A stretch of 64,000 bases of DNA from NCBI RefSeq assembly GCF_000204195.1, contig NZ_AFBG01000025.1, forward strand, positions 62,001 through 126,000. Direction: 5' to 3'. Numbering within the stretch: the stretch's first letter is position 1; each line of letters begins with the position of its first letter. Made by a program: the position numbers and the translations under genes. The DNA is from Acidovorax radicis N35. GTDB taxonomy: Bacteria; Pseudomonadota; Gammaproteobacteria; Burkholderiales; Burkholderiaceae_C. The notes under the pieces were generated by a model. It ran no database searches and was not told the DNA's origin. It saw only the letters and a program-made list of their open reading frames with translations. This document shows, piece by piece, positions 15,858 through 51,020 of this stretch.

Positions 15858-16679
15858 ATGAACGCACCCCTGCCTACCGCCACACCCCGCGCCGACGCTG
15901 CGCACCTTGCCGTCGAACGCGTTCGCCACCCCTTGCAAGCCCGCCACCTCCAGGTGGTGCGGCGGACCGCCGTCAGCCCCGGTTTCGTGCGGCTCACCCT
16001 GGCCGGGCCCGAGCTGGCCGGTTTTGTGAGCGCGGGGTTTGACGACCACCTCAAGCTCATCCTGCCCCAGCCAGGCCAGGAGCGCCCGTCGCTGCCGTCG
16101 ATGCAGGACGGCCGCCCCGTCTTCCCCGACCCACGCCCCGTGCTGCGCGACTACACCCCCGCGCGCCATGACGCCGCTGCGGGCGAGCTGGACATCGAAG
16201 TGGCCCTGCACGACGCAGGCCCTGCCACCGACTGGGCCGCGAGCGCCACCGTGGGCCAGTGGGTGGGCATTGCCGGGCCGCGCGGCAGCATGGTCGTACC
16301 CACCGGTTTTGACTGGCACTGGCTCATCGGCGACGAATCGGCCCTGCCGGCCATTGCCCGCCGCCTGGCCGAGCTGCCCGCCAGCACGATGGCCGTGGTG
16401 CGTATCTACGTGCGCAACCCGGCAGATCAGCGTGCGTTGGCCAGTGCCGCGCAGCTTGATGTGATGTGGGTGGACTCCTTGCGCGGCGCGGTGGATGCCC
16501 TGGTGCTGCCACCGGGCGCCGGCTACATCTGGGCCGCAGGCGAGCACAGCGACATGGCTGCCGTGCGCCGTGCCGTGCTGGCCAAGCCGGGCGTGGACGC
16601 CAAGCGCATGCGCATCTCCGCCTACTGGAAGCGCGGCGCTGCAGACCACCACGAAGACCTGGTCAGCGCAGCAGGGTAA
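15858..16679 (+). CDS. Siderophore-interacting protein (FAD-dependent ferric reductase)
   Basis: This 273-residue protein belongs to the ViuB/YqjH family, which reduces ferric siderophores in the cytoplasm to release iron. Seen are the FAD-binding RDYTPAR motif (about 97-103), the GPRGSMVVP segment, the GDESALPAIARRL nucleotide-binding stretch, and the C-terminal AYWKRGAADHHE tail typical of the family. It is divergent from a MarR regulator, with two palindromic operators between. Its 3' end overlaps the 3' end of the convergent argP-like gene by 17 bp. Confidence 0.9.
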   Translation: MNAPLPTATPRADAAHLAVERVRHPLQARHLQVVRRTAVSPGFVRLTLAGPELAGFVSAGFDDHLKLILPQPGQERPSLPSMQDGRPVFPDPRPVLRDYTPARHDAAAGELDIEVALHDAGPATDWAASATVGQWVGIAGPRGSMVVPTGFDWHWLIGDESALPAIARRLAELPASTMAVVRIYVRNPADQRALASAAQLDVMWVDSLRGAVDALVLPPGAGYIWAAGEHSDMAAVRRAVLAKPGVDAKRMRISAYWKRGAADHHEDLVSAAG

Positions 16680-38204: not shown

Positions 38205-39774
38205 AGAAGTGCGCGTAGCCGAAGGCATTCACATAGTCGCCCGAGAAGCCCGCTACAAATTTGGGCAGCAGCAGCATCATCGAGCTGAACAGTGCGTACT
38301 GCGTGGCCGAGTAGCTGACGTTGGTCAGGCTCGACAGGTAGGCGATGAACGCGGCCGAGGCAATCCCGCTGGCCAGGTTGTCGGCCGAGACCACGGCGAT
38401 CAGCGCGGTCACATCGTGCCCGTGGCCCGCCAGCCAGGCGAACAGCAGGTTGCTGGCGGCGCTCAGGATGGCGCCCAGCATCAGGATGCGCATCACGCCA
38501 AAACGCATCGACAGCACGCCGCCCACGAAAGCACCGGCCAGCGTCATGATCACGCCGTACACCTTGGTGACGGCGGCCACCTCGTCCTTGGTGAAGCCCA
38601 TGTCCACATAGAACGGGTTGGCCATGATGCCCATGACCACATCGCTGATGCGGTAGACGGCGATGAGCGCGAGGATGAGGATGGCTTGTTTGCCATAGCG
38701 CTGAACGAAGTCCTTGAAGGGGTAAAACACCGCGATTTCCAGCCAGGCCAACGAAGGGCGCAGCGCCGCTGGTGCGGGCACCCGAACGTTCTTGCGTGCC
38801 AGAGAGCGCAGCAGATATCCGAGCACAAGCAGGGTCAAACCGGTGCTGGCAACGTCCGCGACTAGCCCAAGCCACCGGGGCGGCGCCAATGAATACACCA
38901 GCAGCATTGGCAACTTTCCAAACCTGATCGCCACCGCCACCATGGGCACCACCAATAGGGCCCAAAGCGGCACGCCCTTGAGCGCCAGCCGCGTGATGGC
39001 CTGACTCAGCTCCAGTCGTTCTTCGGAGGCGGCCCGCGGCGCTGGCTCGCGCGAGAACAGGACCGTAACCACGCCCACGGCCATGGAGGCGGCCATCACG
39101 AGGTAGGCCTTCAGCCATGCGCTGTTCTGGTACGCCGCCGCGCCCTGCAACATGGCCTGGCCCACGGCGGGCGCGACCTCGGCGCGCGCCGCAATCCACA
39201 ACACGCCCGCACCGGCCCAGATCATGGCCAGGCGGTAGCCTGTCTGGTACGAGGCTGCCAGCGCGGCCTGGTGATTGGCGTCGGCAGATTCGATGCGAAA
39301 CGCATCCAACGCAATGTCCTGCGTGGCTGAGCCAAACGCCACCGCGAGCGCGCACCACACGATGGGTCCCAGCGTCTGGCGCGGGTCGGCCAGCGCCATG
39401 CCGATGAGCCCGCCTACGATGAGTGCCTGCGACAGCAGCAGCCAGCTGCGGCGGCGCCCCAGCGCCTGGGTGAGCAGCGGGATCGGCATGCGGTCCACCA
39501 GCGGCGCCCACACCCACTTGAAGCCGTAGGCCAGGCCCACCCAGCTCAGATACCCAATGGTGCTGCGGTCAATGCCCGCTTCGCGCAGGCGAAAGCTCAG
39601 CGTGCCCAGCACCAGCAGCAATGGCAGCCCGGCGGAGAACCCGAGCGTGAGCATGCGCAGGCTGGCGGGCTCCAGGTACACGCGCAGCGTCTGCAGCCAG
39701 GGCGTGCGCGGGGGCTTGTCCGGGGCGGTGCTGGGTGCGAGGCTGGGGCGGGAAGATGTGGAGGTGTCTGACAT
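38086..39774 (-). CDS. ampG: AmpG-family muropeptide permease
   Basis: This 562-residue MFS protein has about fourteen helices with the AmpG features YLEPASLRMLTLGFSAGLPLLLVLGTLSFRLREAGI, YGFKWVWAPLVDR and GSATQDIALDAFRIE. AmpG imports GlcNAc-anhydro-MurNAc peptides for cell-wall recycling. Two central helices beyond the usual twelve fit AmpG proteins. ATG 39,774 is used; the frame extends upstream without support. Its 3' end overlaps the sensor kinase gene by 119 bp. Confidence 0.88.
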   Translation of the reverse strand: MSDTSTSSRPSLAPSTAPDKPPRTPWLQTLRVYLEPASLRMLTLGFSAGLPLLLVLGTLSFRLREAGIDRSTIGYLSWVGLAYGFKWVWAPLVDRMPIPLLTQALGRRRSWLLLSQALIVGGLIGMALADPRQTLGPIVWCALAVAFGSATQDIALDAFRIESADANHQAALAASYQTGYRLAMIWAGAGVLWIAARAEVAPAVGQAMLQGAAAYQNSAWLKAYLVMAASMAVGVVTVLFSREPAPRAASEERLELSQAITRLALKGVPLWALLVVPMVAVAIRFGKLPMLLVYSLAPPRWLGLVADVASTGLTLLVLGYLLRSLARKNVRVPAPAALRPSLAWLEIAVFYPFKDFVQRYGKQAILILALIAVYRISDVVMGIMANPFYVDMGFTKDEVAAVTKVYGVIMTLAGAFVGGVLSMRFGVMRILMLGAILSAASNLLFAWLAGHGHDVTALIAVVSADNLASGIASAAFIAYLSSLTNVSYSATQYALFSSMMLLLPKFVAGFSGDYVNAFGYAHFFTATAMLGLPVLVLVWLAARVRAPSATPPAHRSPDPAQP

Positions 39775-39904
39775 GGGCGAGCGTGGGTTTTGTCTATCAT
39801 CGCCGACGCACCCTTGTAGCCAGTCTGTCGGCCTCCATCTGCGCAGCAGACTCTGGTGTGTTGTGTGCCAGCGCTGCTCATTATTCCTTTTGGGATTGCC
39901 TTGT

Positions 39905-40753
39905 ATGTGTCTTTTCTGCCCCGCTCCCTCTGTTGCGCCGTCGTCCCCATGGTCGGCGCGCCGCGCCTTCCTGCTGGCAGCAGGTGTCAGCGCTGCGGCG
40001 CCGGTGCTGGCGCAGGTGGATGTGGGTACCGCGTCCAGCCTGCGCAAGCTGGTGCCCGCCGAGACGCTGGAAAACTCTGCGGCCCAGCAGTACCAGCAGA
40101 TGCTGCAGCAGGCCAAGGCCAAACGTGCGCTGGCGCCCGACAACCACCCGCAGCTGCAGCGCCTGCACGCCATTGCCAAGCGGCTGATCCCGCACGCCAC
40201 GCCCTGGAACGAGCGCGCCAGGCAGTGGCGCTGGGAGGTCAACCTCATTGGCAGCCAGCAGATCAACGCGTTCTGCATGCCCGGCGGCAAGATTGCGTTC
40301 TATACCGGCATCCTCGACCAGCTCAAACTCACCGACGACGAAGCCGCGATGATCATGGGCCACGAAATGGCCCACGCGCTGCGCGAGCATGCGCGTGAGC
40401 GCATCGCCAAGACGCAGGGCACCAACCTGGCGCTGCGCCTGGGCTCGCAGCTGCTCGGCCTGGGAGACCTGGGCAATGCGGCTGCCAGCCTGGGCGGGCA
40501 ACTGCTCACGTTGCAGTTCAGCCGGTCGGACGAGACCGATGCCGACCTGGTGGGGCTGGAGCTGGCCGCCCGCGCGGGCTACCAGCCTTCGGCGGCCGTG
40601 AGCCTGTGGCAAAAGATGGGCAACGCCAGCGGCAACAAGCAGGGCGGGCTGGCCTTCCTCTCCACCCACCCCTCGGGTCCGGCGCGCATCAAGGAATTGG
40701 AAATGAACGTGCCGAAGGTGCAGGGCCTCTACCAAGCCGCCCAACGCGGCTGA
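39905..40753 (+). CDS. M48-family metalloprotease
   Basis: This 282-residue protein has a signal peptide with a twin-arginine start (SARRAFLLAAGVSAAAPVLAQ). The zinc site is His153-Glu-Met-Ala-His157 with Glu210 in SDETDADLVGLEL as third ligand. The C-terminal segment LAFLSTHPSGPARIKELE is typical of Oma1/YggG-like periplasmic peptidases, which take part in outer-membrane quality control. The frame extends upstream; ATG 39,905 is 24 codons ahead of the hydrophobic core. It is divergent from ampG. Confidence 0.88.
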   Translation: MCLFCPAPSVAPSSPWSARRAFLLAAGVSAAAPVLAQVDVGTASSLRKLVPAETLENSAAQQYQQMLQQAKAKRALAPDNHPQLQRLHAIAKRLIPHATPWNERARQWRWEVNLIGSQQINAFCMPGGKIAFYTGILDQLKLTDDEAAMIMGHEMAHALREHARERIAKTQGTNLALRLGSQLLGLGDLGNAAASLGGQLLTLQFSRSDETDADLVGLELAARAGYQPSAAVSLWQKMGNASGNKQGGLAFLSTHPSGPARIKELEMNVPKVQGLYQAAQRG

Positions 40754-40778
40754 CCTGTCGGGCGCCCCTGTGTGCCTG

Positions 40779-40852
40779 GATCTATCAAATTTGATAGCTG
40801 CCAGCGCTTGCTGAATAGGCGCTAGGGCCTGATTTTGTTCAAATTTCTGGCG
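40779..40852 (+). repeat. Family A interspersed inverted repeat
   Basis: CTATCAAATTTGATAGCTG, CCAGCGCTTGCTGAATAGG, CGCTAGGGCCTGATTTTG, TTCAAATTTC. It overlaps the 3' end of the DUF2218 gene region, between convergent genes. Confidence 0.75.
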
Positions 40853-41159
40853 CGACGCCAGCGCCTGGGCCGGTCTGCGCCGGCTGCCAGCACACGGCCA
40901 TGGGGCTCTTGCGCGAGAACAGCTCCACATGCGAGTCGATGGCGAACTGCACGCGCGCCAGGCTGGCATCGTCCTCGGCGCTGCAGTCGAAACGCAAGGC
41001 CTCGGTATCCGCGCGCAACACGCACAGGCCCCAGGGAAAGTGGGCCTCGCCATGGTGTGCGTCGTAGGTCACGCGGATCTTGCGGGTGAAGTGGTAACAC
41101 AGGCGCTGCAGGTAGCGGCTGGCCTCGGTGGTGGGCAGGTGGCCCTGGCGTTGCATCAT
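40839..41159 (-). CDS. DUF2218 protein
   Basis: This 106-residue cytoplasmic protein has the DUF2218 pattern: YLQRLCYHFTRKIRVTYDAHHGEAHFPWGLCVLRADTEALRFDCSAEDDASLARVQFAIDSHVELFSRK. Such proteins are often encoded next to iron or siderophore transporters; the role is unproven. Its start overlaps the stop of the upstream ATPase gene (ATGA), so it is translationally coupled to the siderophore transporter genes. Confidence 0.88.
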   Translation of the reverse strand: MMQRQGHLPTTEASRYLQRLCYHFTRKIRVTYDAHHGEAHFPWGLCVLRADTEALRFDCSAEDDASLARVQFAIDSHVELFSRKSPMAVCWQPAQTGPGAGVAPEI

Positions 41160-41977
41160 GGGTGCGGGGATGTTGTTGTGGGGGAAAAGGGTTCGGACAG
41201 TGGCAGCGCTGCATCGGCCAACACCAGCAAATTGCCTTTCGAGCAGCGCTCCACGCGGGCCTCGACGCCATAGGCACGCTGCAGCAGGGCAGGGGTGAGC
41301 ACCTGCGCGGGCTCGCCGGCAGCCAGCACCGTGCCGCCGCCCAGCACCAGCACGTGCTGGCAAAAGCGCAGGGCCAGGTTCAGGTCGTGCACGGCCACCA
41401 GGCCGATCGCGCCCTGCTGCTGCACCATGGCGCGCACGGCCTGCAGCACCTGCAGCTGCCAGCGCAGGTCGAGGGCGCTGGTGGGTTCGTCCAGCAGCAG
41501 CAGGCGCGGCGCGCGCACGATGACCTGGGCCAGACCCACCATCTGGCGCTGGCCGCCCGACAGTTCGTCGAGCCGGCGCAGCGCCAGCGCCTGCAGCCCC
41601 AGCGCCGCCACCACCGACTCGATGGCCGCCTCGCGCTGCGCGGTGCTCCATTCGCTGCGGCTGGCGCGCAGGGCGCTCTGCCAGGTCTCGTAGGCCACGA
41701 GCGAGGTGCTCTGCGGCAGTGCCTGGGGCAGGTAGCCCACGAGGCGCAGGCGTTCGCGCGGGGCCAGCATGGCCAGGTCGGTCCCTTCCAGCAGCACGCG
41801 CCCCTGTGCGGGCCGCAGCCCGGCCACGGCCTTGAGCAGCGTGGACTTGCCCACGGCATTGGGGCCCACCACGGCCACCAAGGTGCCGGCGGGCACGCAA
41901 GGCAGGTCCACGCCCTGCAGCACGGCCCGGCCGGGGTAGCCAGCGGTGAGTTGTTCGAGGGTCAGGCCTGTTGTCAT
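41156..41977 (-). CDS. Iron-siderophore ABC transporter ATP-binding protein (FecE/FepC type)
   Basis: This 273-residue protein has Walker A GPNAVGKST (38-46; Ala in place of the usual Gly), the signature LSGGQRQM (139-146), Walker B LLLLDEPTS (159-167), and the switch His in AVHDLNLAL. It powers import of ferric siderophores through the permease encoded upstream. A spacer with a family B repeat separates it from the permease gene. Confidence 0.93.
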   Translation of the reverse strand: MTTGLTLEQLTAGYPGRAVLQGVDLPCVPAGTLVAVVGPNAVGKSTLLKAVAGLRPAQGRVLLEGTDLAMLAPRERLRLVGYLPQALPQSTSLVAYETWQSALRASRSEWSTAQREAAIESVVAALGLQALALRRLDELSGGQRQMVGLAQVIVRAPRLLLLDEPTSALDLRWQLQVLQAVRAMVQQQGAIGLVAVHDLNLALRFCQHVLVLGGGTVLAAGEPAQVLTPALLQRAYGVEARVERCSKGNLLVLADAALPLSEPFSPTTTSPHP

Positions 41978-42034
41978 ATCAAGCCTCCATGGCGCTACGC
42001 ACCCTCAGCAGCCAATGAAACTGACGCGGCCCAG

Positions 42035-42146
42035 GCCAGCGCCCCCGCGCAAGGGCCGCCCCGCCGCGCTGGGGGCGTCCCCCTCCCGCATTGCGCGGCA
42101 ATGTGAGAGAGGGGGAAGACGCGCAGCGGCTCAGGTGGTGCTTCAT
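42035..42146 (-). repeat. Family B GC-rich interspersed repeat, copy 5
   Basis: CCCCGCGCAAGGGCCGCCCC, GCCGCGCTGGGGGCGTCC, CCCTCCCGCATTGCGCGGC and GAGAGAGGGGGAAGACGCGC. It lies between the ATPase and permease genes of the siderophore transporter, inside the operon. Confidence 0.7.
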
Positions 42147-43189
42147 GCAGCCCTTCTTTGGCGCAGCACCAGCACCATGAACAGCGGCACGCCCACCAGC
42201 GCGGTGATGACGCCGATGGGCAGCACCACGCCGGGCACCAGCGCCTTGCTCAGGATGGACGCGAGCGACAGCATCAGCGCCCCGGCCAGCGCGCTGCCCG
42301 GCAGGTAGTAGCGGTGGTCTTCGCCCAGCAGCATGCGCGCGATGTGTGGTCCCACCAGGCCCACGAAGCCGATGGTGCCCACGAACGACAGGGCGGTGGC
42401 CGCCAGCAGGCTTACGCGCAGCAGTGTCACCAGGCGCAGCCGCTCCACCGCGATGCCGAAGCTGCGCGCCTGGTCCTCGCCCGCGCGCAGCGCCGTGAGG
42501 GCCCAGGCCTGGTGCGCCGACCAAAGCATGCACAGCGCCAGCACGGTGCCCACGATGCCGATCTTGGTCCAGGTGGCGCGGCCCAGGCTGCCCATGGTCC
42601 AGAACACGATCTGCTGCAGCGCGTTGCTGTCGGCAATGAACTGCAGCAGCCACAGCAGCGCCTCGAAGCTGAACAGCAGCGCGATGCCGAACAACACCAC
42701 CGTGTCCACGCTGGCGCCCTGGCGCCAGGCCAGCAGCTGGATCAACGCCGTGGCACACGCTGCTCCAGCAAAGGCGCACAGCGGCACCGCGAGGTTCTCG
42801 CCCCAGGCCAGCAGCGTGAAACCGCTGACCACGGCGGCTGACGCGCCCACCGCCGCAGCGGCCGACACGCCCAGCGTGAACGGGCTGGCCAGCGGGTTGT
42901 TGAGCGCGGTCTGCATCTCGGCCCCGGCCAGGCCCAGGCTGGCGCCCACCAGCACGGCCATCACTGCATAGGGCAGGCGCACTTCCCACAGGATGACCTG
43001 CTGCGCCTGCGGCAGGGCGTCGGGCGCGAAGAGGCCGCGCAGCACGTCGGCAAACGCGAAGGTGGAGGGCCCGAGTGCAATGTCGGCCACGACGCTGGCG
43101 CACAGCACGGCCAGCAAGGTGGCCAGCAGCAGCAGACGCCGGCGCACGAAATGCCCGTAGCGCTGCGCGAGCGAATCGGTGGAGGCCAT
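42143..43189 (-). CDS. FecCD-family iron-siderophore permease
   Basis: This 348-residue protein has about nine or ten helices with the FecCD signatures IRLPYAVMAVLVGASLGLAGAEMQTALNNPLASPFTLGVSAAAAVGA-like (here VRLPYAVM...) and VGTIGFVGLVGPHIARMLLGEDHRYYLPGSALAGA. It forms the inner-membrane channel for ferric siderophores with the FecE-type ATPase. Only one permease gene is present, so it probably acts as a homodimer. ATG 43,189 follows an alternative longer frame. Confidence 0.92.
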   Translation of the reverse strand: MASTDSLAQRYGHFVRRRLLLLATLLAVLCASVVADIALGPSTFAFADVLRGLFAPDALPQAQQVILWEVRLPYAVMAVLVGASLGLAGAEMQTALNNPLASPFTLGVSAAAAVGASAAVVSGFTLLAWGENLAVPLCAFAGAACATALIQLLAWRQGASVDTVVLFGIALLFSFEALLWLLQFIADSNALQQIVFWTMGSLGRATWTKIGIVGTVLALCMLWSAHQAWALTALRAGEDQARSFGIAVERLRLVTLLRVSLLAATALSFVGTIGFVGLVGPHIARMLLGEDHRYYLPGSALAGALMLSLASILSKALVPGVVLPIGVITALVGVPLFMVLVLRQRRAA

Positions 43190-43286
43190 GGCTACGGGCA
43201 AGGGAGAGGCAGTGGCTGGGTTCAACGGAGGCAATTCCGGTATAGGGCGTGTGGTGCGCGAAAGGGTTTCAGAGCGTCCGTGTTTT

Positions 43287-44240
43287 TCAGCGGGGCTGCT
43301 GGGCCAATGCCAGGGCGTCGATGAGCCCCGGGGCCATGGCGCTGCCATGGTCCAGGCCGGGCAGCATGGCCATGTCCACGCGCAGCTCGGGCCACTGCAG
43401 AGCGCCCAGCTGGTCGGCCAGCGCCAGGGTGCGCTCGACCATGCGGCGCTCGACCTGTATGGCAGCGCGGGCTGCGGTGGGTGCCGTCTGCGCCTGTTCC
43501 AGGCTGCCCACGCGCAGCAGCAACTGCGCCCGGAAGGGGCGCGGCGCCATCGCGTGGACCTGTGCGAACTGCCCGGCCGTGCGCAGAAGCTGTGCGCCGT
43601 TCCACCACACCGAGGGGCTGGTGGCTGCGTACCGCGTGAATTGCGCGGGGCGCGTGAACAGTGCGTGCAGCACCAGCAAGCCGCCGAACGAATGCCCGCT
43701 CAGGGTCTGGCGCTGCGGGTCAGTGGCAAAGGCATGCGCCACGCGCGGCTGCAACTCGCGCGCAATGAAGTCGAGCAGGATGTCAGCGCCGCCTGCTTCG
43801 GGTGTGGCCGTGCTGCCGGGCACGGGAGGTGTGTAGTCGCGCTGGCGTTCTGCCGGGTGGATCACGGCGTCACCAGGGTGGCCGATGCCGACCACGATGG
43901 TGCTGTCGGTGCCCATGTCTCCGGGCCTCCCCGCGCTGTTGCGGGCCAGCTGGGCCGCCAGTGCAAAGGCGGCGTTGCCGTCGAGCAGATACAGCACCGG
44001 GTACCCCGTGGCGGGCGCGGGGCCCGCAGGCTGCTGCACCCAGATGCGCCAGGTGCGGCCGCTGGCCGGGTCGCGCAGATCCTGCTGGTGCGTGCCCGGC
44101 AGCTGGGCGGGTGCTGCCTGCAGCAGCGGTGGCGCCGTAGCCTTGCCGTGGGCGCACCCACCCAGCAAGCCCAGGCTCGCACCGGCGCCTGCGGCAAGCA
44201 GTGCGCGGCGCGTACCCTGTGGTGACAGGGGCACGGGCAT
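43287..44240 (-). CDS. Lipoprotein alpha/beta esterase (Fes/IroE-like), siderophore-linked
   Basis: This 317-residue protein has a twin-Arg start and lipobox-like LLGGC (Cys29), so it is probably a membrane-anchored lipoprotein. The esterase core has Ser184 in LSGHSFGGLLV and a late His in LPGLDHGSAM. Similarity is to the IroE/BesA group of esterases that cleave catecholate or other ester siderophores. It sits between the binding protein gene (1-nt stop/start overlap) and the permease gene. A role in releasing iron or processing the siderophore in the periplasm is inferred. Confidence 0.82.
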   Translation of the reverse strand: MPVPLSPQGTRRALLAAGAGASLGLLGGCAHGKATAPPLLQAAPAQLPGTHQQDLRDPASGRTWRIWVQQPAGPAPATGYPVLYLLDGNAAFALAAQLARNSAGRPGDMGTDSTIVVGIGHPGDAVIHPAERQRDYTPPVPGSTATPEAGGADILLDFIARELQPRVAHAFATDPQRQTLSGHSFGGLLVLHALFTRPAQFTRYAATSPSVWWNGAQLLRTAGQFAQVHAMAPRPFRAQLLLRVGSLEQAQTAPTAARAAIQVERRMVERTLALADQLGALQWPELRVDMAMLPGLDHGSAMAPGLIDALALAQQPR

Positions 44241-45394
44241 CAGAGGCTGGTCCAGTACACGCCGGTCAGCGGTATGGGCTGGAACTGGGTGAACAGGGTC
44301 TGCAGCGTGGCACGCGGGTCCAGGTCGGCAAACAGCGCGGGGTGCAGCCATTTGGCAAACACCTGCACCGCCACCACGTTGAAGGGGGAGTTGTAGTAGT
44401 GGTGCCAGATGGCGTGGGCGCGCCCGTTCTGCTGCACGGCCTCCAGCTGGGCGATGCCTCTGCGCTGGGTGGCACGCGCCAGCGATGCGCGGGCCGCCTC
44501 GGGCGTGGCGTCAGCGCCCAGCACGATGCGCAGAGGCGACTTCTCGGTAGTGGCCATGCTGCCGATGCCGGTGCCGATGTACAGCCGGGGCTGCGTGGCG
44601 ATCAGGAACTCGGGGTTGAGCGTGCCGTGCTCGCCCGGAATGCGGCCACGCGCCACGTTCTCGGCGCCAGCGGCATCGAGCAGCACGCCCACCAGGCCCA
44701 CCATGGTGGCGCAGCAGTCGTCGGCCAGCCCTACCCGGTTTTCGAGGAACACACTGGGGTGGCGGGTGCCGGCCGGCAGGGTGCGCAGGCGAGACTCGAC
44801 CCGTTCGAGCTGGGCCCGCCACAGGGTGTTGAAAGCGTCGGCCTCCTTGCGCTTGCCCAGCACGGCGCCCAGCAGTTCCATGCTGCGCGGCGTGTTCCTG
44901 AGCGGGTCATGGCGGAAGTCGAGGAACACTACGGCGATGCCGGCCGCCTCCAGCCGGGCCAGGGTCTCGCGGTCGTTCATGCTCGGCCCATGGCCACCCG
45001 CCAGGCCCAGGATGGCGACCTGCGGGCGCAGCGCTATCGCCTGCTCGTCGCTGAAGCTGCCGGCGTTGTTGCGGCCCACGCGGGGCACCTTGTCGAGCTG
45101 CGGGAAGCGGCTGCGCCACTGCGCATAGCCGGCGGGGTCCAGCGTTTCGTAGTCGCCCATCATGCCCACCAGGCGGCGTGCCACGTCGTCGCGCTCGAAC
45201 ACGCCCAGCGCAGGCAACAGCCGGCCTTCAGCCAGCAGGATGCGGTCCACCTTGGCGGGCAGGGTGACGGTGCGGCCTGCCAGGTCGGTGACGGTCTGGG
45301 GTGTGCCCTGGGCCTGTACCGGGGCTGTGGTGATGAGCACGGCGCAGAGCGCAACGCCCAGGGAGCCGAAAAAACGGGGGAGTGTGAAGGTCAT
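44240..45394 (-). CDS. ABC transporter periplasmic siderophore-binding protein (FecB-like)
   Basis: This 384-residue protein has a signal peptide (FFGSLGVALCAVLITTAPVQAQ) and an opening domain TVTDLAGRTVTLPAKVDRILLAEGRLLPALG typical of class III periplasmic-binding proteins. A conserved C-terminal VAVQVFAKWLHPALF segment follows. It binds ferric siderophores and hands them to the FecCD permease. It is the first gene of the minus-strand siderophore operon, with a Fur-box-like site upstream. Confidence 0.9.
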   Translation of the reverse strand: MTFTLPRFFGSLGVALCAVLITTAPVQAQGTPQTVTDLAGRTVTLPAKVDRILLAEGRLLPALGVFERDDVARRLVGMMGDYETLDPAGYAQWRSRFPQLDKVPRVGRNNAGSFSDEQAIALRPQVAILGLAGGHGPSMNDRETLARLEAAGIAVVFLDFRHDPLRNTPRSMELLGAVLGKRKEADAFNTLWRAQLERVESRLRTLPAGTRHPSVFLENRVGLADDCCATMVGLVGVLLDAAGAENVARGRIPGEHGTLNPEFLIATQPRLYIGTGIGSMATTEKSPLRIVLGADATPEAARASLARATQRRGIAQLEAVQQNGRAHAIWHHYYNSPFNVVAVQVFAKWLHPALFADLDPRATLQTLFTQFQPIPLTGVYWTSL

Positions 45395-45445
45395 GGACGG
45401 CTGCGAGGGGCTGGGGGCCCGCTGAAGAAGCTCCCAGGCAACAAG

Positions 45446-45474
45446 CAATATTGAGAATCATTTGCATTTATTAT
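45446..45474. promoter_or_regulatory. Fur-box-like site between fecB-like and AraC genes
   Basis: CAATATTGAGAATCATTTGC followed by ATTTATTATC, a run of A/T hexamers with GAGAATCATTTGC, close to the Fur consensus. It is 52 bp upstream of the binding-protein start and 180 bp upstream of the AraC start. It would repress both sides when iron is sufficient. Confidence 0.75.
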
Positions 45475-45653
45475 CGCAAGTTGCTAGCATCCCATGGCGC
45501 GGTGCCTGCCGTGTTTGCCCCGTGGAGAAAAACCTTTGCGCAAACGTCAGGCGTGGCCGGTGTGGTTCGGGTACATCCCTTGCCCACCCCGGGCCCGCAC
45601 CTTTTCACCGCGCTTTCATCCACACTTTTTTGCATCTCCTCGCACCTGCGCCC

Positions 45654-46646
45654 ATGTCCGTTGTCAGCCCCTTGAATGTCCAGCCAGCGGCGCCGCCGTC
45701 GGAGGGCATGCAGGCGTCGCTGCAGCGCCATCTGCAGCGGGTGCGGGTCTTGCGCCCCGGGCTGCACCTGCACGCCGACGATGCGGCCGACGCGCAGGAC
45801 TTCACCGCCAGTGGTGACATGGATGCGGGGCTGCGCATCGTGGTGCTGCTGGAGGGCTCGGTGGACGTGAGCTATGGCCCGCGACGCGTGGCGCTGTCGA
45901 GCGCTACTGCCCAACGCCCTCGGGAGCCAGGGCTGCCGCGCGCGCTGCTGGTGTCAGTGGCCCAGCCCGAGCGCTTTGAGCGCCGCGCCCGCCGGGGGGC
46001 CTACGCGCGCCGGGTGAGCGTGGGCCTGGGGGGCGAGTGGCTGGAGCAGGTGGCTGGGCCCGCAGCGTCCGATGCCATCGAGGCCTTTCGCCGCCAGCAC
46101 CTGGCCATGCACCACTGGCAGCCGTCGCCCCGCATTGCCGCGCTGGCAGAGCAGATCACCCATGCGCCGGACCTGAGCCCCCTGCTGCTGCACCTGTACC
46201 TGGAAAGCCGCGCGCTGGAACTGGTGGGCGAAGCCCTGGGCAGCCTGGCGCAGCACGCCCCGGGGCCAGCCCCAGCGCCCGCGCCCGCCCCGGCACCGGC
46301 CGCGGCGGCACTGCGCCTGCTGCCCCATGAGCACAAGCGCATGCGCGCGCTGCACGCCTTCTTGCAGACCGACGGTGCGATGGACATGTCGCTCGATGCG
46401 CTGGCGCGCCAGGCAGGCACCAATGCCAACACGCTGCAGCGGCACTTCCGCGCGGTGTATGGCACCACGGTGTTCGACTTTGTGCGCGAACACCGTCTGC
46501 AGCGGGCGCGCCACGCGCTGGAATGCGACGGCCTGACGGTAGGGCAGGCGGCCTTGGTCGCGGGCTACAACAGCGCCGCCAACTTCGCCACGGCATACCG
46601 CAAGCGCTTTGGCATGCCGCCCAAGCTGGCCCGGGCACGAATCTGA
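45654..46646 (+). CDS. AraC-type regulator (siderophore-responsive, PchR/AlcR-like)
   Basis: This 330-residue protein has an N-terminal sensing domain of about 210 residues and a C-terminal double HTH: MRALHAFLQTDGAMDMSLDALARQAGTNANTLQRHFRAVYGTTVFDFVREHRLQRARHAL, then the AALVAGYNSAANFATAYRKRFGMPP second motif. An Ala/Pro repeat run links the two. PchR/AlcR relatives activate siderophore receptor genes when the siderophore is present. Position before the TonB receptor gene fits. ATG 45,654 is chosen because upstream sequence has no family character. Confidence 0.9.
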   Translation: MSVVSPLNVQPAAPPSEGMQASLQRHLQRVRVLRPGLHLHADDAADAQDFTASGDMDAGLRIVVLLEGSVDVSYGPRRVALSSATAQRPREPGLPRALLVSVAQPERFERRARRGAYARRVSVGLGGEWLEQVAGPAASDAIEAFRRQHLAMHHWQPSPRIAALAEQITHAPDLSPLLLHLYLESRALELVGEALGSLAQHAPGPAPAPAPAPAPAAAALRLLPHEHKRMRALHAFLQTDGAMDMSLDALARQAGTNANTLQRHFRAVYGTTVFDFVREHRLQRARHALECDGLTVGQAALVAGYNSAANFATAYRKRFGMPPKLARARI

Positions 46647-47089
46647 AACCCCCCTGAGTCGCCTGCGGCGCCTTCCCCCAGAGGGGGACGCCGCCAGCGC
46701 GGCGGGGCGGCCCTTGCGCGGCGGCCCTGGCGGGGCCGCGCCCGCTGCAGGCGCGTGGGGAGATTCGAAGCCCCGGATTCCATGGCAGTGCGCTTCCCCA
46801 GGAAGGCGCTTCCAACGTAGCTTGGCCATGTGCTCTTTGCGGGCAGCGCGGGTGCCGCAAACATCTTTGTTGACCGTGCAAACACAGGTCCACGGGCCGC
46901 GTGGAACCATCGCTGCATGCCGGATGTAACAAGTCGGCACGCCTTGCAACACGTCCCGGGCACTTCGTTGTTACCGCTCCGTCCTGGAGCGGGTCTGTGT
47001 CCTGGATGAAATCGCACTCATTCTTGTTTGCAGTCCGTTGGCGGGGTGGCGTTCCCTTTTTCTACCGTTTTTGATTCAGGACTTTCTCT
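46647..47089 (+). other. 443-bp region before the TonB receptor gene
   Basis: It starts with a family B repeat (46,650-46,745). Next come two direct GCGCTTCC units (46,790 and 46,806), which could be AraC half-sites. A weak Fur-like stretch, CGCACTCATTCTTGTTTGC, lies near 47,013-47,031, about 60 bp before the receptor start. No coding frame is supported. Confidence 0.5.
46650..46745 (+). repeat. Family B GC-rich interspersed repeat, copy 6
   Basis: CCCCCCTGAGTCGCCTGCGG, CGCCTTCCCCCAGAGGGGG, ACGCCGCCAGCGCGGCGGGG, CGGCCCTTGCGCGGCGGCCC. It begins at the AraC gene stop codon. Confidence 0.75.
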
Positions 47090-49261
47090 ATGCAGACTCG
47101 CCGCCCATCCCGGGGTGCCACCCCGGCACACCCTTTTGCTTTGCGCCAGGTCGCCCGGGCCTGTGCGTGGACCTTGTTCGCCAGTGCCGGCGCAGCCTGG
47201 GCGCAAAGCCCGGCCGCCCCGGTGGTGCTCAAGGAAGTGACCGTGAACGCGGCGGCCGAGACGCCCGAAAGCCTGCCCGCTGCCGCGCCCGGTGGCCAGG
47301 TGGCCCGGGGCACGCGCCTGGGGGTGCTGGGCAATGTGGGCGTGATGGACACGCCCTTCAACATGACGGGCTACACCGCCGAAGGCATTGCCGACCAGCA
47401 GGCGCAGACCGTGGGCGCCGTGCTCAAGAACGACCCTTCGGTGCGCACCACCACCAACGAAGGCCACATCGTCGAGAACTTCATCATCCGGGGCTTCGGC
47501 GTGGGCGCCAGTTCCATGGCCATCAATGGTGCCTACGGCCTCGCGCCCGAGCAGAACACGCCCACCGAGATCTTCGAGCGCGTGGAAGTGCTCAAGGGCC
47601 CCGGCGCCATGATGATGGGGCTGCCGCCGTCAGGTGATGTGGGTGGCGCCATCAACCTCGTGCCCAAGCGCGCGGGCAAGGAGCCGCTCACACGCGTGAC
47701 CACCACCTATTCGTCCAAATCGAACGTGGGCGTGCACGCCGACGTGTCGCGCCGCTTCGGCGAAGGCCAGCGCCTGGGCGTGCGTGTCAACGGCGTGCTG
47801 TCGGGCGGCGAGACCTGGCTGGACCACCAGACCAAGGCGCGCGAGATCGGCCACCTGGCGCTGGACTACCAGGGCGAAGGCTGGAACGTGGAGGCCGATG
47901 CCTATTCGCTGAAGAACAAGGTGCGCAAGGGCTCGCCCATGCAGCCCATCATCACGGGCTGGACCACGGTGCCCAAGGCACCCGATGGTTCTACCAACTT
48001 CTTCTACGGCGAAGGCGTCTACAGCAATACGCTGACGCAGGGCCTCATCGTGCGCGGCCAGGCGCGGATCAATACCGGCTGGACGGCGTTTGCATCGGCG
48101 GGCAAGGCCGAGCATGCATACGACGGCTTCATTTTCGGCACGCGCCCGGTGTGGACGGCGGCGAACGCGGCTTCGGGCAACGCCACGGGCACGGCCTACA
48201 ACTCCTGGGGCGAGTACGACACCACCACGGCCGAGTTGGGCGTGCGCGGCCAGTTCAGCACCGGCGCCGTGGCCCACAAGCTGACCCTGGCCGCCAACGT
48301 GATGAGCTACCAGGGTGGCAGCCGGGCCAATGGCACGGCCGCCATCAACAGCAACATCTACAACCCCCGGCCCATTGCGATGCCGCCGGGCGGGGCGGCT
48401 TCCACCTACAACCCCCTCAACGACGACGTGATGACTGCAATGAGCGTGGTGGACACACTGGCGTTCGCCGACGACAGGGTGCAGCTCACCCTGGGCGTGC
48501 GCGCGCAGCAGGTCAACCAGAAGCTCAACAAGTACAAGGAGAGCGCCGTGACCCCACTGGTGGGCGTGGTCGCCAAGCCCTGGGGCGAGAACGTTTCGCT
48601 GTACGGCAACTACGTGGAAGGTCTGAGCGCCGGCACCACCGTGAAGGCGCCCTATGCCAACGAGGGAGAGAGCTTCAAGCCCTACAAGAGCAAGCAGGCC
48701 GAGGTGGGCGTGAAGTGGGTTGCGGGCAGCCTGACGCAGACAGTGAGCCTGTTCCAGATCAGCAAGCCTGCCCTGATCGAAGCCAACAACCGCCAGGTGC
48801 TGGACGGCGAGCAGCGCAACCGGGGCGTGGAGTGGAACGTGTTCGGCCAGCTGACCCCGGCCCTCACGCTGCTGGGTGGCGCGGCCTACACCGAGGCCGA
48901 GCAGACCCAGACCGCCAAGGGCGTGAACCAGGGCCGCGCGCAGTTTGGCGTGCCCAAGCTCACGCTGAACCTGGGCGCGGACTGGGCCATCCCTGGTGTG
49001 CAGGGCCTGTCGGTGAACGGCCGGGTGAACCACACGGGTGCACAGTGGCTCACGGGCGACAACAGCGTGAAGCTGCCGTCCTGGACCACGCTGGATGTGG
49101 GCGCCCGCTATGCGACGCGTTTTGGCGCACAACCCGTGGTGCTGCGCGCCACGGTGACCAACCTCACCAACCGCGCTTACTTTGAAAGTATCTGGGGCGC
49201 GGGCCGGGTGAACGTGGGTGCGCCACGCGCCGTGCGCCTGTCGGCCTCGTTCGATTTCTGA
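47090..49261 (+). CDS. TonB-dependent siderophore receptor
   Basis: This 723-residue outer-membrane protein has a signal peptide (cut about residue 37, AWAQ), then a plug domain with NFIIRGFGVGASSMAINGAYGL and EIFERVEVLKGPGAMMMGLPPSGDVGGAINLVPKR. The beta-barrel that follows ends in Phe (SASFDF). It takes up ferric siderophore using the TonB energy system. The exact ligand is unknown; the esterase in the island suggests an ester-linked siderophore. The AraC gene upstream and a long stem-loop downstream frame it. Confidence 0.95.
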   Translation: MQTRRPSRGATPAHPFALRQVARACAWTLFASAGAAWAQSPAAPVVLKEVTVNAAAETPESLPAAAPGGQVARGTRLGVLGNVGVMDTPFNMTGYTAEGIADQQAQTVGAVLKNDPSVRTTTNEGHIVENFIIRGFGVGASSMAINGAYGLAPEQNTPTEIFERVEVLKGPGAMMMGLPPSGDVGGAINLVPKRAGKEPLTRVTTTYSSKSNVGVHADVSRRFGEGQRLGVRVNGVLSGGETWLDHQTKAREIGHLALDYQGEGWNVEADAYSLKNKVRKGSPMQPIITGWTTVPKAPDGSTNFFYGEGVYSNTLTQGLIVRGQARINTGWTAFASAGKAEHAYDGFIFGTRPVWTAANAASGNATGTAYNSWGEYDTTTAELGVRGQFSTGAVAHKLTLAANVMSYQGGSRANGTAAINSNIYNPRPIAMPPGGAASTYNPLNDDVMTAMSVVDTLAFADDRVQLTLGVRAQQVNQKLNKYKESAVTPLVGVVAKPWGENVSLYGNYVEGLSAGTTVKAPYANEGESFKPYKSKQAEVGVKWVAGSLTQTVSLFQISKPALIEANNRQVLDGEQRNRGVEWNVFGQLTPALTLLGGAAYTEAEQTQTAKGVNQGRAQFGVPKLTLNLGADWAIPGVQGLSVNGRVNHTGAQWLTGDNSVKLPSWTTLDVGARYATRFGAQPVVLRATVTNLTNRAYFESIWGAGRVNVGAPRAVRLSASFDF

Positions 49262-49270
49262 CGCCGCATT

Positions 49271-49312
49271 GCAGGGGCCGGCGTGCATCCTGGTGGGCAC
49301 GCTGGCCCCTGC
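49271..49312 (+). terminator. Long stem-loop after the TonB receptor gene
   Basis: The stem GCAGGGGCCGGCGTGC pairs with GCACGCTGGCCCCTGC (one G-T wobble) around a 10-nt loop. It starts 10 bp after the stop and lacks a T-run, so it is either a terminator-like or an mRNA-stabilising hairpin. Confidence 0.6.
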
Positions 49313-49332
49313 GGCACGCGCAGAGGCACAGG

Positions 49333-49402
49333 GCTACTTCAAAAATAATAGCTGTCTGCGCTTTCTGGATAATCGCTAGAACCCAAAAATGCCAAAAAAA
49401 GG
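49333..49402 (+). repeat. Family A interspersed inverted repeat
   Basis: AAAATAATAGCTGTCTGCGC, TTTCTGGATAATCGCTAGAA, CCCAAAAATGCC. The arms are imperfect. It lies between convergent genes next to the hydrolase stop codon. Confidence 0.65.
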
Positions 49403-49403
49403 C

Positions 49404-50042
49404 TTACGTCCCACCCACATAGGGGTTGCTTTGGCGCTCACGCCCGAACGTGCTCTCAGGACCGTGCCCAGGGATGAACACCGTCTGGTTGCCCATGGGC
49501 CACAGGCGCTGGGTGATGCTGTCGATGAGCTGCTGGTGGTTTCCCTGCGGGAAGTCGGTGCGCCCCATGCTGCCGGCAAACAGCACATCGCCCACAAAAG
49601 CACGGTCAATCTGCGGCGCATGGAACACCACATGCCCAGGGGTGTGGCCGGGGCAGTGGCGCACATTCAGCGTCTCGTCGCCAATCTGCACCGTGTCGCC
49701 GTCGTGCAGCCAGCGCGTGGGCGTGAAGTGCTGGGCGGGCGGAAAACCAAACATCGCGCTTTGCTGCGGCAGGCCGTCAATCCAGAACTGGTCGCCCGGG
49801 TGAGGGCCGACGATGGGCAGCGAAAGCCGCTCTGCCAGCTCGCCCGTGCCGCCCGCGTGGTCGATGTGGGCGTGGGTGAGCCAGATCTGTTCGAGCGTGA
49901 GGTCAAGGCGCTGGATTTCTGCCAGCAGCACATCCAGGTCACCGCCGGGGTCGATCACGGCGGCTTTGTGGGTGGCGTCGCACCAGACGAGGGAGCAGTT
50001 TTGCTGGAACGCAGTAACAGGGACGGTGAGGTAGCGGAGCAT
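49404..50042 (-). CDS. Metallo-beta-lactamase-fold hydrolase (YcbL/glyoxalase II-like)
   Basis: This 212-residue protein has the zinc motif THAHIDHAGG (56-65), a further His-Cys-Pro-Gly-His at HCPGHTPGHVVF, and the closing GHGP motif. It is close in size and pattern to YcbL-type glyoxalase II proteins, which hydrolyse thioesters such as lactoylglutathione. The substrate is not proven. It lies 60 bp downstream of the LysR gene on the same strand. Confidence 0.9.
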   Translation of the reverse strand: MLRYLTVPVTAFQQNCSLVWCDATHKAAVIDPGGDLDVLLAEIQRLDLTLEQIWLTHAHIDHAGGTGELAERLSLPIVGPHPGDQFWIDGLPQQSAMFGFPPAQHFTPTRWLHDGDTVQIGDETLNVRHCPGHTPGHVVFHAPQIDRAFVGDVLFAGSMGRTDFPQGNHQQLIDSITQRLWPMGNQTVFIPGHGPESTFGRERQSNPYVGGT

Positions 50043-50102
50043 GGTGGGTGAGGATTGGTTTTGTGTATTTTGCGGGTCTGGCGCATGGCGGACGGGACAG
50101 GG

Positions 50103-51020
50103 TCAAGCCCGCGCCAGCCGATCAACGAGGAAATCCACCAGCACCCGCACGCGCAGCGGCATGTGCCGGTTGGCGGGGTACAGCAGCGAAAACGGGCGGG
50201 AGGCACCGGCATGTGCGGGCAGCACCTCCTGCAAGGCACCGCTGTGCAGGTCGGCTTCCACAATGAACCGGTAGGTCTGCAGCAGCCCTGCGCCGGCACG
50301 CGCCAGGGTCACGGGGCCCAGGATGTCATCGGCGCAGCGCAGGCGGCCTTGGGTGGGCACCTCCATATCGCGCCCGGCCGCGTCGCGCAGTATCCACGCC
50401 ACCGCCTGCCCGCTGCTGGGCAGCACGAACTGGATGCATTCGTGCGCCGCCAGGTCGGCCGCTTCGTGTGGCGTGCCGCAACGCGCCAGATACGCCGGGG
50501 CGGCGACCACCACCAGGGCGGCGTCCTCCAGCTTGCGTGCCACCAGCCCCGAGTCGATGGGTGCGCGACCGCGCACGGCCAGGTCAAAGCCTTCCTCGGT
50601 GAAGTCCACGTTGCGGTTGCTCAACTGCAGCTCCAGCTCCACGCCGGGGTAGGCCTGCGCAAATGCGGGCAGCAGGGGCAGGATGCGGCAGTGCCCATAG
50701 GAGGTGGGCAGGCTGAAGCGGACGAGGCCCGCCGGGCTTTGTTGCTGGCCTGACAGCTCGCGTTCTGCCTCGGCCAGCTGCCCCAGCGCCTGGCGGCATT
50801 GCTCGTAGTAGCGCTTGCCGGCGTCGGTCAGCCGCACCTGGCGTGTCGTGCGCTGGAACAGGCGCACGCCCAGGCGCGCCTCCATGCGTGCCACGGATCG
50901 GCTCACCGCCGCCGCCGTCAGCCCGGCCGCCTGGGCGGCGGCCGTGAAGCTTTGCCACTGCGCGGTCAGGCAGAACAGCTCGATGCTGCCCAGCTTCAGG
51001 TCGTCAAATTGGCGCGCCAT
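50103..51020 (-). CDS. LysR family transcriptional regulator
   Basis: This 305-residue protein has the LysR HTH at about 10-68 (GSIELFCLTAQWQSFTAAAQAAGLTAAAVSRSVARMEARLGVRLFQRTTRQVRLT) and a full effector domain. It is divergent from a GST-tautomerase-SnoaL operon, with two dyads (ATTAC-N5-GTAAT and CAGT-N6-ACTG) between, so it probably controls that operon. Confidence 0.92.
   Translation of the reverse strand: MARQFDDLKLGSIELFCLTAQWQSFTAAAQAAGLTAAAVSRSVARMEARLGVRLFQRTTRQVRLTDAGKRYYEQCRQALGQLAEAERELSGQQQSPAGLVRFSLPTSYGHCRILPLLPAFAQAYPGVELELQLSNRNVDFTEEGFDLAVRGRAPIDSGLVARKLEDAALVVVAAPAYLARCGTPHEAADLAAHECIQFVLPSSGQAVAWILRDAAGRDMEVPTQGRLRCADDILGPVTLARAGAGLLQTYRFIVEADLHSGALQEVLPAHAGASRPFSLLYPANRHMPLRVRVLVDFLVDRLARA

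What the first reader, a model, noticed from the sequence alone, without database searches (positions are those of the whole stretch)
40839..49261. Self-contained xenosiderophore uptake island with a lipoprotein esterase
Receptor, AraC activator, binding protein, esterase, permease, ATPase and DUF2218 lie around a Fur-like site, without biosynthesis genes. The esterase has a lipobox and is coupled to the binding protein, so hydrolysis may occur in the periplasm before import, which differs from cytoplasmic Fes. The role of DUF2218 is unknown.
Basis: partly seen in the sequence, partly recalled or inferred. Interest (0 to 1): 0.6.

Follow-up and report, generated by a model that had tools for sequence, protein, structure and literature searches.

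The report
Iron-piracy locus with exported siderophore esterase
An Acidovorax-type bacterium carries a seven-gene cassette that probably steals another microbe's iron carrier and cuts it open outside the inner membrane; the plan is largely known, but the lipid-anchored cutter and a small unstudied helper protein make it worth testing.

Summary
Seven genes at 40839-49261 encode DUF2218, ATPase, FecCD permease, PF00756 esterase, binding protein, AraC regulator and TonB receptor, with a conserved Fur-like box between binding protein and AraC. Twelve of 47 same-genus genomes carry the block (one without the receptor); in most non-carriers examined the two flanking genes are adjacent. The genome has no NRPS condensation domain, and its one NIS-siderophore cluster has its own uptake genes, so the island's ligand is probably foreign. 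The esterase is nearest to periplasmic PfeE. All 13 island copies show twin arginines and a lipobox without Asp at +2, which predicts a Tat-exported, probably outer-membrane lipoprotein. Periplasmic siderophore hydrolysis itself is known (PfeE, Cee). Newer points are the Tat-lipoprotein form, its coupling to a single-permease ABC importer, and a lead on DUF2218: it is fused to siderophore-interacting flavin reductases in 9 of 9 long forms scanned, and 16 of 60 stand-alone copies lie beside two or more siderophore gene types (0 of 20 control windows). It probably acts in cytoplasmic iron release. Ligand, activity and localisation are untested. New variant of a known kind; interest about 0.4.

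The parts
40839..41156 (-). DUF2218 protein (PF09981), 105 aa, no visible signal peptide
   Evidence: 88.2 bits against cut-off 29.1; start by eye from the reading frame; solved homologue 2jpi, E 1e-9
41156..41977 (-). ABC transporter ATPase of the siderophore/heme/B12 type
   Evidence: ABC_tran 95.3 bits
42143..43348 (-). FecCD-family permease, a single gene; the real start is probably further in, near 43189
   Evidence: FecCD 278 bits over residues 82-396
43287..44240 (-). PF00756 siderophore-type esterase with twin-arginine signal and lipobox (TRRALLAAGAGASLGLLGGC); start ATG overlaps the binding-protein stop
   Evidence: Esterase 75.6 bits; best solved relative PfeE, E 5e-36; signal and GHSFGG motif; TGATG overlap
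44240..45394 (-). Periplasmic ferric-siderophore binding protein, YiuA type
   Evidence: Peripla_BP_2 31.8 bits; YiuA 6b2x, E 7.8e-97; the five pocket residues named for YiuA are identical
45447..45475 (.). Fur-like box between the binding-protein operon and AraC
   Evidence: 14 of 19 positions, 0 of 200 shuffles
45654..46646 (+). AraC-family regulator
   Evidence: HTH_18 76.2 bits
47090..49261 (+). TonB-dependent siderophore receptor, FemA/BauA branch
   Evidence: TIGR01783 331.4 bits against cut-off 223.5; FemA, E 1.5e-136
15858..16679 (+). Stand-alone siderophore-interacting flavin reductase (FAD_binding_9/SIP), 25 kb from the island; possible partner, not part of the block
   Evidence: PF08021, E 4.7e-33 at G000:C6:77951-78289, window 15951-16289; reading frame

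Best explanation
A Fur-repressed, AraC-controlled cassette for a foreign ferric siderophore that contains at least one ester bond. The receptor imports the ferric complex into the periplasm. A Tat-exported esterase lipoprotein, probably on the inner face of the outer membrane, hydrolyses the ester. The YiuA-type binding protein passes the loosened ferric product to a homodimeric FecCD permease and its ATPase. In the cytoplasm DUF2218 helps to remove the iron, probably with a siderophore-interacting flavin reductase such as the one encoded 25 kb away. Shown by sequence: gene content, synteny, Fur-like box, export signal, catalytic motif, binding-pocket residues. Inferred: ligand chemistry, the order of hydrolysis and import, the membrane side, AraC activation of the receptor, and the DUF2218 step.
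For: Families of all seven genes. Block conserved in the window plus 11 same-genus genomes (10 of the 11 with the receptor) and, rearranged, in G056. Fixed site: flanking M48 and MBL genes within about 1.5 kb in 15 of 20 non-carriers and 0 of 9 carriers. Fur-like box and TGATG coupling. Twin arginines, lipobox and GHSxGG in 13 of 13 copies. Esterase nearest PfeE, binding protein nearest YiuA with identical pocket residues. No condensation domain; the only NIS cluster has its own uptake genes. DUF2218 fused to SIP reductase domains in 9 of 9 long forms scanned and beside two or more siderophore gene types in 16 of 60 loci against 0 of 20 control windows. Reductase gene in 12 of 12 carriers against 20 of 35 other same-genus genomes, p 0.004, uncorrected for relatedness.
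Against: No activity, binding or localisation data. G017 keeps the block without a receptor in the stretch read. G020 keeps DUF2218 but has no esterase or binding-protein hit, so DUF2218 can outlive the island. Thirty-nine of 60 DUF2218 loci show none of the siderophore gene types sought, and with one type enough the contrast is not significant (21 of 60 against 3 of 20, p 0.076). Two of the nine fused DUF2218 domains score below the Pfam cut-off. The reductase gene is also in 20 of 35 non-carriers.
Confidence: 0.58

Rival explanations
1. PfeE-type release: the esterase frees the iron in the periplasm, and the ABC system carries the freed iron, or a different or unhydrolysed siderophore.
For: PfeE is the nearest solved esterase, and in P. 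[quoted passage not shown] In G050 and G145 a receptor of the same branch and an esterase stand with a PepSY-TM gene and no ABC genes in the stretches read.
Against: In the island the esterase is translationally coupled to the binding protein and sits inside the ABC operon in 12 of 13 copies. Pocket residues for a chelated metal are kept. No PepSY gene was found in the same-genus island stretches.
Confidence: 0.17
2. The intact ferric siderophore is imported; the lipoprotein esterase only destroys the iron-free ligand or detoxifies ester-linked siderophore antibiotics.
For: The signal shows only that the enzyme is exported; its substrate is unknown. The esterase is the least conserved gene of the block among most same-genus copies.
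Against: Siderophore esterases are the nearest solved relatives, and close linkage with the uptake genes is kept in all 13 copies.
Confidence: 0.13
3. The island is a second uptake route for the strain's own NIS siderophore.
For: The NIS cluster carries paralogous receptor, binding protein, permease and ATPase, 39, 39, 51 and 42% identical to the island's.
Against: That cluster already has a complete uptake set. Its synthetase is nearest FslA (rhizoferrin), 259 bits against a cut-off of 1000; products of that kind are amide-linked (recalled), so there is no ester to cut.
Confidence: 0.07

Closest known systems
PfeA-PfeE enterobactin piracy, Pseudomonas aeruginosa (PMC8001512, passages)
   Same: Foreign siderophore, receptor gene next to an exported PF00756 esterase; PfeE is the best solved relative of this esterase
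   Different: Receptor here is of the FemA/BauA branch, not FepA type; regulator is AraC rather than a two-component system; own ABC importer; twin-arginine lipobox signal
YiuRABC of Yersinia pestis (PMC5683015, passages)
   Same: Binding protein with the same five pocket residues and a locus without biosynthesis genes
   Different: No esterase or DUF2218 is mentioned in the passages seen; its natural ligand is also unknown
XusABC of Bacteroidota, with esterase BDI_3403 in Parabacteroides (PMC13142918, passages)
   Same: Xenosiderophore operon with a putative periplasmic esterase
   Different: Surface-exposed binding lipoprotein and a PepSY reductase instead of ABC import
vctA / VCA0233 region of Vibrio cholerae (PMC7600106 and PMC11317620, passages)
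   Same: AraC regulator, xenosiderophore receptor, ABC importer and a DUF2218 gene close together
   Different: Enterobactin/vibriobactin system; no esterase is mentioned in the passages seen
Fes of Escherichia coli
   Same: PF00756 esterase domain
   Different: Cytoplasmic; E. coli-type Fes entries match only at E 1.8e-3 or worse, and NCBIfam enterochelin esterase scores 35.2 against a cut-off of 222

Membership tests
IroE/PfeE-type exported siderophore esterase | PF00756 esterase domain | tested here: met
   75.6 bits against 22
IroE/PfeE-type exported siderophore esterase | Ser nucleophile motif and downstream His | tested here: met
   GHSFGG and GLDHG in the window copy; across islands GHSxGG 13 of 13 and the His pattern 12 of 13, not matched in L040
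IroE/PfeE-type exported siderophore esterase | Export from the cytoplasm | tested here: inconclusive
   Signal by sequence pattern only: twin arginines and lipobox in 13 of 13; no predictor program and no localisation experiment
IroE/PfeE-type exported siderophore esterase | Hydrolysis of a ferric ester siderophore | not testable with these tools
   Needs an enzyme assay
Enterobactin system of PfeA or FepA type | FepA-type receptor | tested here: not met
   FepA-family model 20.6 bits against 493; best solved relatives are FemA and BauA
Fhu hydroxamate system | Double-length FhuB permease | tested here: not met
   The permease is a single FecCD unit; the best FhuB model scores 178.2 against 849
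YiuA-type siderophore binding protein | Basic triad Arg64, Arg165, Arg223, with His331 and Tyr334 | tested here: met
   All five align with identical residues, read by eye and taking the chain numbers as the UniProt numbers of PMC5683015
DUF2218 | PF09981 over the gathering score | tested here: met
   88.2 bits against 29.1
Endogenous siderophore locus | Biosynthesis genes next to the uptake genes | tested here: not met
   None in the island; no condensation domain in the genome; the NIS cluster lies on another contig with its own uptake genes

The most novel reading that the evidence does not exclude
A two-stage iron-release pathway: a Tat-exported lipoprotein esterase opens a foreign siderophore at the outer membrane, a dedicated single-permease ABC importer takes up the opened ferric product, and DUF2218 is a cytoplasmic hand-over subunit for siderophore-interacting flavin reductases, which would give this unstudied family its first defined step.
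Probability: 0.3. Interest if true: 0.6.

Novelty: new variant of a known kind. Interest (0 to 1): 0.4.

Why it matters
If true, a foreign siderophore is cut in the periplasm and its product is still imported through a dedicated importer, a mix of the PfeE and Fep strategies. It would also make the role of DUF2218 directly testable. That family occurs in 75 of 398 sampled genomes of the phylum. The two papers of the held library that name both DUF2218 and siderophores give it no tested role in the passages seen.

Tried and rejected
Ligand from receptor similarity: dropped. FemA (mycobactin) is the best solved relative of the island receptor (460 bits), but it is a better one of the receptor in the genome's own NIS cluster (580 bits) and of G145's receptor (505 bits), so the branch does not name the ligand.

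Ligand from relatives with biosynthesis genes: G141 (L053) has DUF2218 and an esterase inside an enterobactin-type cluster. G120 (L202) has an esterase and AraC beside a Cir/FepA-like receptor and a gene like the first 433 residues of EntF. The G120 receptor is of another branch, and in L053 no receptor of the island's kind was found in the stretch read, so this hints at catecholates without showing it. In G145 an aryl-AMP-ligase-like gene beside the receptor and esterase lies with enoyl-CoA hydratase and short-chain dehydrogenase genes, which may be catabolic.

DUF2218 fold: an AlphaFold2 model from three sequences was weak (pLDDT 68.8, pTM 0.53). Foldseek gave no match under E 0.001, and its own homologue 2jpi ranked eighth. 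No function follows.

DUF2218 and any one siderophore gene type: 21 of 60 loci against 3 of 20 control windows, p 0.076, not significant; with two or more types 16 of 60 against 0 of 20, p 0.0055. The two-type cut was set after the first result was seen in the plan of the same script. The control windows were placed by me at arbitrary distances on contigs of 20 of the same genomes.

Rfam: nothing at gathering scores in 38000-51000. The genome-contig scan with a single protein found only two close relatives, both Acidovorax; an alignment query might have reached further, and that scan is spent.
Full report
What is there. The window lies in a 5.5 Mb genome in 30 contigs, listed as 100% complete. 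Two named records with the island are Acidovorax; one of them, L118, appears to be the same contig as same-genus genome G017 (both 55,683 bases). On the minus strand from 45394 down to 40839 lie the genes for binding protein, esterase, FecCD permease, ATPase and DUF2218. On the plus strand lie AraC (45654-46646) and the TonB receptor (47090-49261). The binding-protein stop and esterase start overlap as TGATG in 12 of 13 islands; L047 differs. A Fur-like box between binding protein and AraC matches 14 of 19 consensus positions, reached in 0 of 200 single-base shuffles. Its core is identical in 12 of 13 islands with one change in L047; in L045, L047 and L049, 1, 2 and 6 of 200 shuffles reached the same score as the site. 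Upstream of the receptor the best match is 10 of 19, which is not evidence of a site. That AraC activates the receptor is an inference.

A block at one site. Of 148 genomes searched, 21 have DUF2218 and 45 have a match to the esterase, the own genome included in both. I read the surroundings of the other 20 DUF2218 genomes. Eleven further same-genus genomes hold DUF2218, ATPase, permease, esterase, binding protein and AraC in the window's order; ten of the eleven also show the receptor, and G017 (L039, L118) shows none in the stretch read. G056, of another genus in the family, has the same genes with the receptor moved behind DUF2218. The draft genome G031 has a binding-protein match beside a partial esterase on one contig and DUF2218 on another and is not counted as a carrier. 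Around the flanking MBL gene I read 30 loci from 30 of the 47 same-genus genomes: the M48 gene lies within about 1.5 kb in 15 of 20 non-carriers and in 0 of 9 carriers. The remaining genome, G020, keeps a DUF2218 gene 0.3 kb from MBL, with no esterase or binding-protein hit. So the island has been gained or lost as a block at a fixed place.

Is the ligand foreign? The genome has no condensation domain and one IucA/IucC synthetase. That synthetase sits with an SbnA-like enzyme, an octopine-dehydrogenase-type enzyme, a PLP decarboxylase, an MFS exporter, and its own receptor, binding protein, permease and ATPase. Its best NCBIfam match is FslA (rhizoferrin), 259 bits against a cut-off of 1000. 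Products of that kind are amide-linked carboxylates (recalled), not ester substrates. The island's ligand is therefore probably foreign, though this is not proven; other kinds of biosynthesis gene were not searched.

The esterase. Nearest solved relatives are PfeE (E 5e-36), a Bacillus BES protein, fungal siderophore esterases and IroE; E. coli-type Fes entries score 1.8e-3 or worse. It is one of nine PF00756 matches in the genome, seven of them over the cut-off. All 13 island copies have twin arginines, a hydrophobic stretch and a lipobox cysteine, no Asp at +2, and GHSxGG; a downstream His pattern was matched in 12 of 13, not in L040. By recalled Tat and Lol rules this predicts a Tat-exported lipoprotein of the outer membrane. 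Among 20 other related esterases the pattern scan found a lipobox in three (L200, L203, L213); L202 and L210 may have one by eye, and the rest have other signal peptides or none visible. Lipid anchoring is thus constant in the island and uncommon outside it. Periplasmic hydrolysis is known: PfeE and Campylobacter Cee (PMC8001512, passages) and a putative Parabacteroides esterase (PMC13142918, passages). A library search with siderophore esterase, lipoprotein, twin-arginine and periplasm (any two) returned 6,620 papers; none of the 15 listed holds the phrase siderophore esterase. This is weak evidence that a lipoprotein form is undescribed.

Import. The binding protein is closest to YiuA (E 7.8e-97), and the residues named for YiuA's pocket (Arg64, Arg165, Arg223, His331, Tyr334) align with identical residues, read by eye. 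The permease is a single FecCD gene, so a homodimer is likely (inference). In two related loci, G050 and G145, a receptor of the same branch and an esterase stand with a PepSY-TM gene and no ABC genes in the stretches read. PepSY proteins of that kind are linked to periplasmic reduction (HiuB, PMC12424826, passages; XusC, PMC13142918, passages). G056 has both kinds; the same-genus islands show no PepSY gene in the stretches read. This looks like a swap between reduction in the periplasm and ABC import.

DUF2218. The protein has no visible signal peptide. PMC11317620 (passages) notes DUF2218 in the methylolanthanin and rhodopetrobactin clusters and VCA0233 beside xenosiderophore uptake genes, and suggests a part in regulation or transport. 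PMC7600106 (passages) lists VCA0233 among the genes that change in a regulator mutant. New here: of 20 weaker DUF2218 matches fetched I scanned nine of 343-404 aa, and all nine read DUF2218, FAD_binding_9, SIP, the domains of ferric-siderophore reductases; seven of the nine DUF2218 domains pass the Pfam cut-off. The other eleven were not scanned. In G064 of the own family a weak DUF2218 match and a FAD_binding_9 match share one 385-aa frame. Such fusions may be listed in public domain databases (not checked). In the phylum sample 75 of 398 genomes have DUF2218. I read 60 strong matches there, leaving out the own genome, G101 (already read) and the weaker ones: 21 have at least one siderophore gene type nearby and 16 have two or more, against 3 and 0 of 20 control windows. 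Thirty-nine of 60 show none, so DUF2218 is not confined to siderophore loci. A stand-alone siderophore-interacting reductase lies in this window at 15858-16679. It occurs in all 12 carriers and in 20 of 35 other same-genus genomes (G020 and G031 counted among the 35; p 0.004, uncorrected for relatedness).

Verdict. What is left is a variant: a lipid-anchored esterase coupled to an ABC importer, and a concrete lead for DUF2218.

Noticed in passing
L010 3727-16039 (own genome, contig C11:52000-71000): Single NIS synthetase (FslA-like) with SbnA-like, octopine-dehydrogenase-type and PLP-decarboxylase genes, an exporter and its own receptor and ABC genes: possibly a rhizoferrin-like siderophore with a diaminopropionate step.
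   Followed up: partly
L053 5103-18512 (G141): DUF2218 and a PF00756 esterase lie between isochorismatase and an EntF-like NRPS in an enterobactin-type cluster.
   Followed up: partly
L056 4573-12865 (G059): Another genus of the family has AraC, Cir-like receptor, DUF2218, binding protein, FecCD, ATPase and esterase in one stretch, a parallel arrangement with a catecholate-type receptor.
   Followed up: partly
L204 1965-11060 (G145): Aryl-AMP-ligase-like, enoyl-CoA hydratase and short-chain dehydrogenase genes beside receptor, esterase and PepSY genes: perhaps use of the released aromatic part as food.
   Followed up: partly
L004 1261-2178 (own genome, contig C6 near 6447): A second PF00756 protein whose start reads like a twin-arginine lipoprotein signal (TRRAALTAAVAAALAAC).
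   Followed up: no
L277 166-1414 (G020): DUF2218 gene left beside MBL with the rest of the island not found, at a contig edge: a possible relic.
   Followed up: partly
L130 6215-8328: DUF2218 beside a PadR regulator and a rubrerythrin-VIT1 protein, a possible iron-export context.
   Followed up: no
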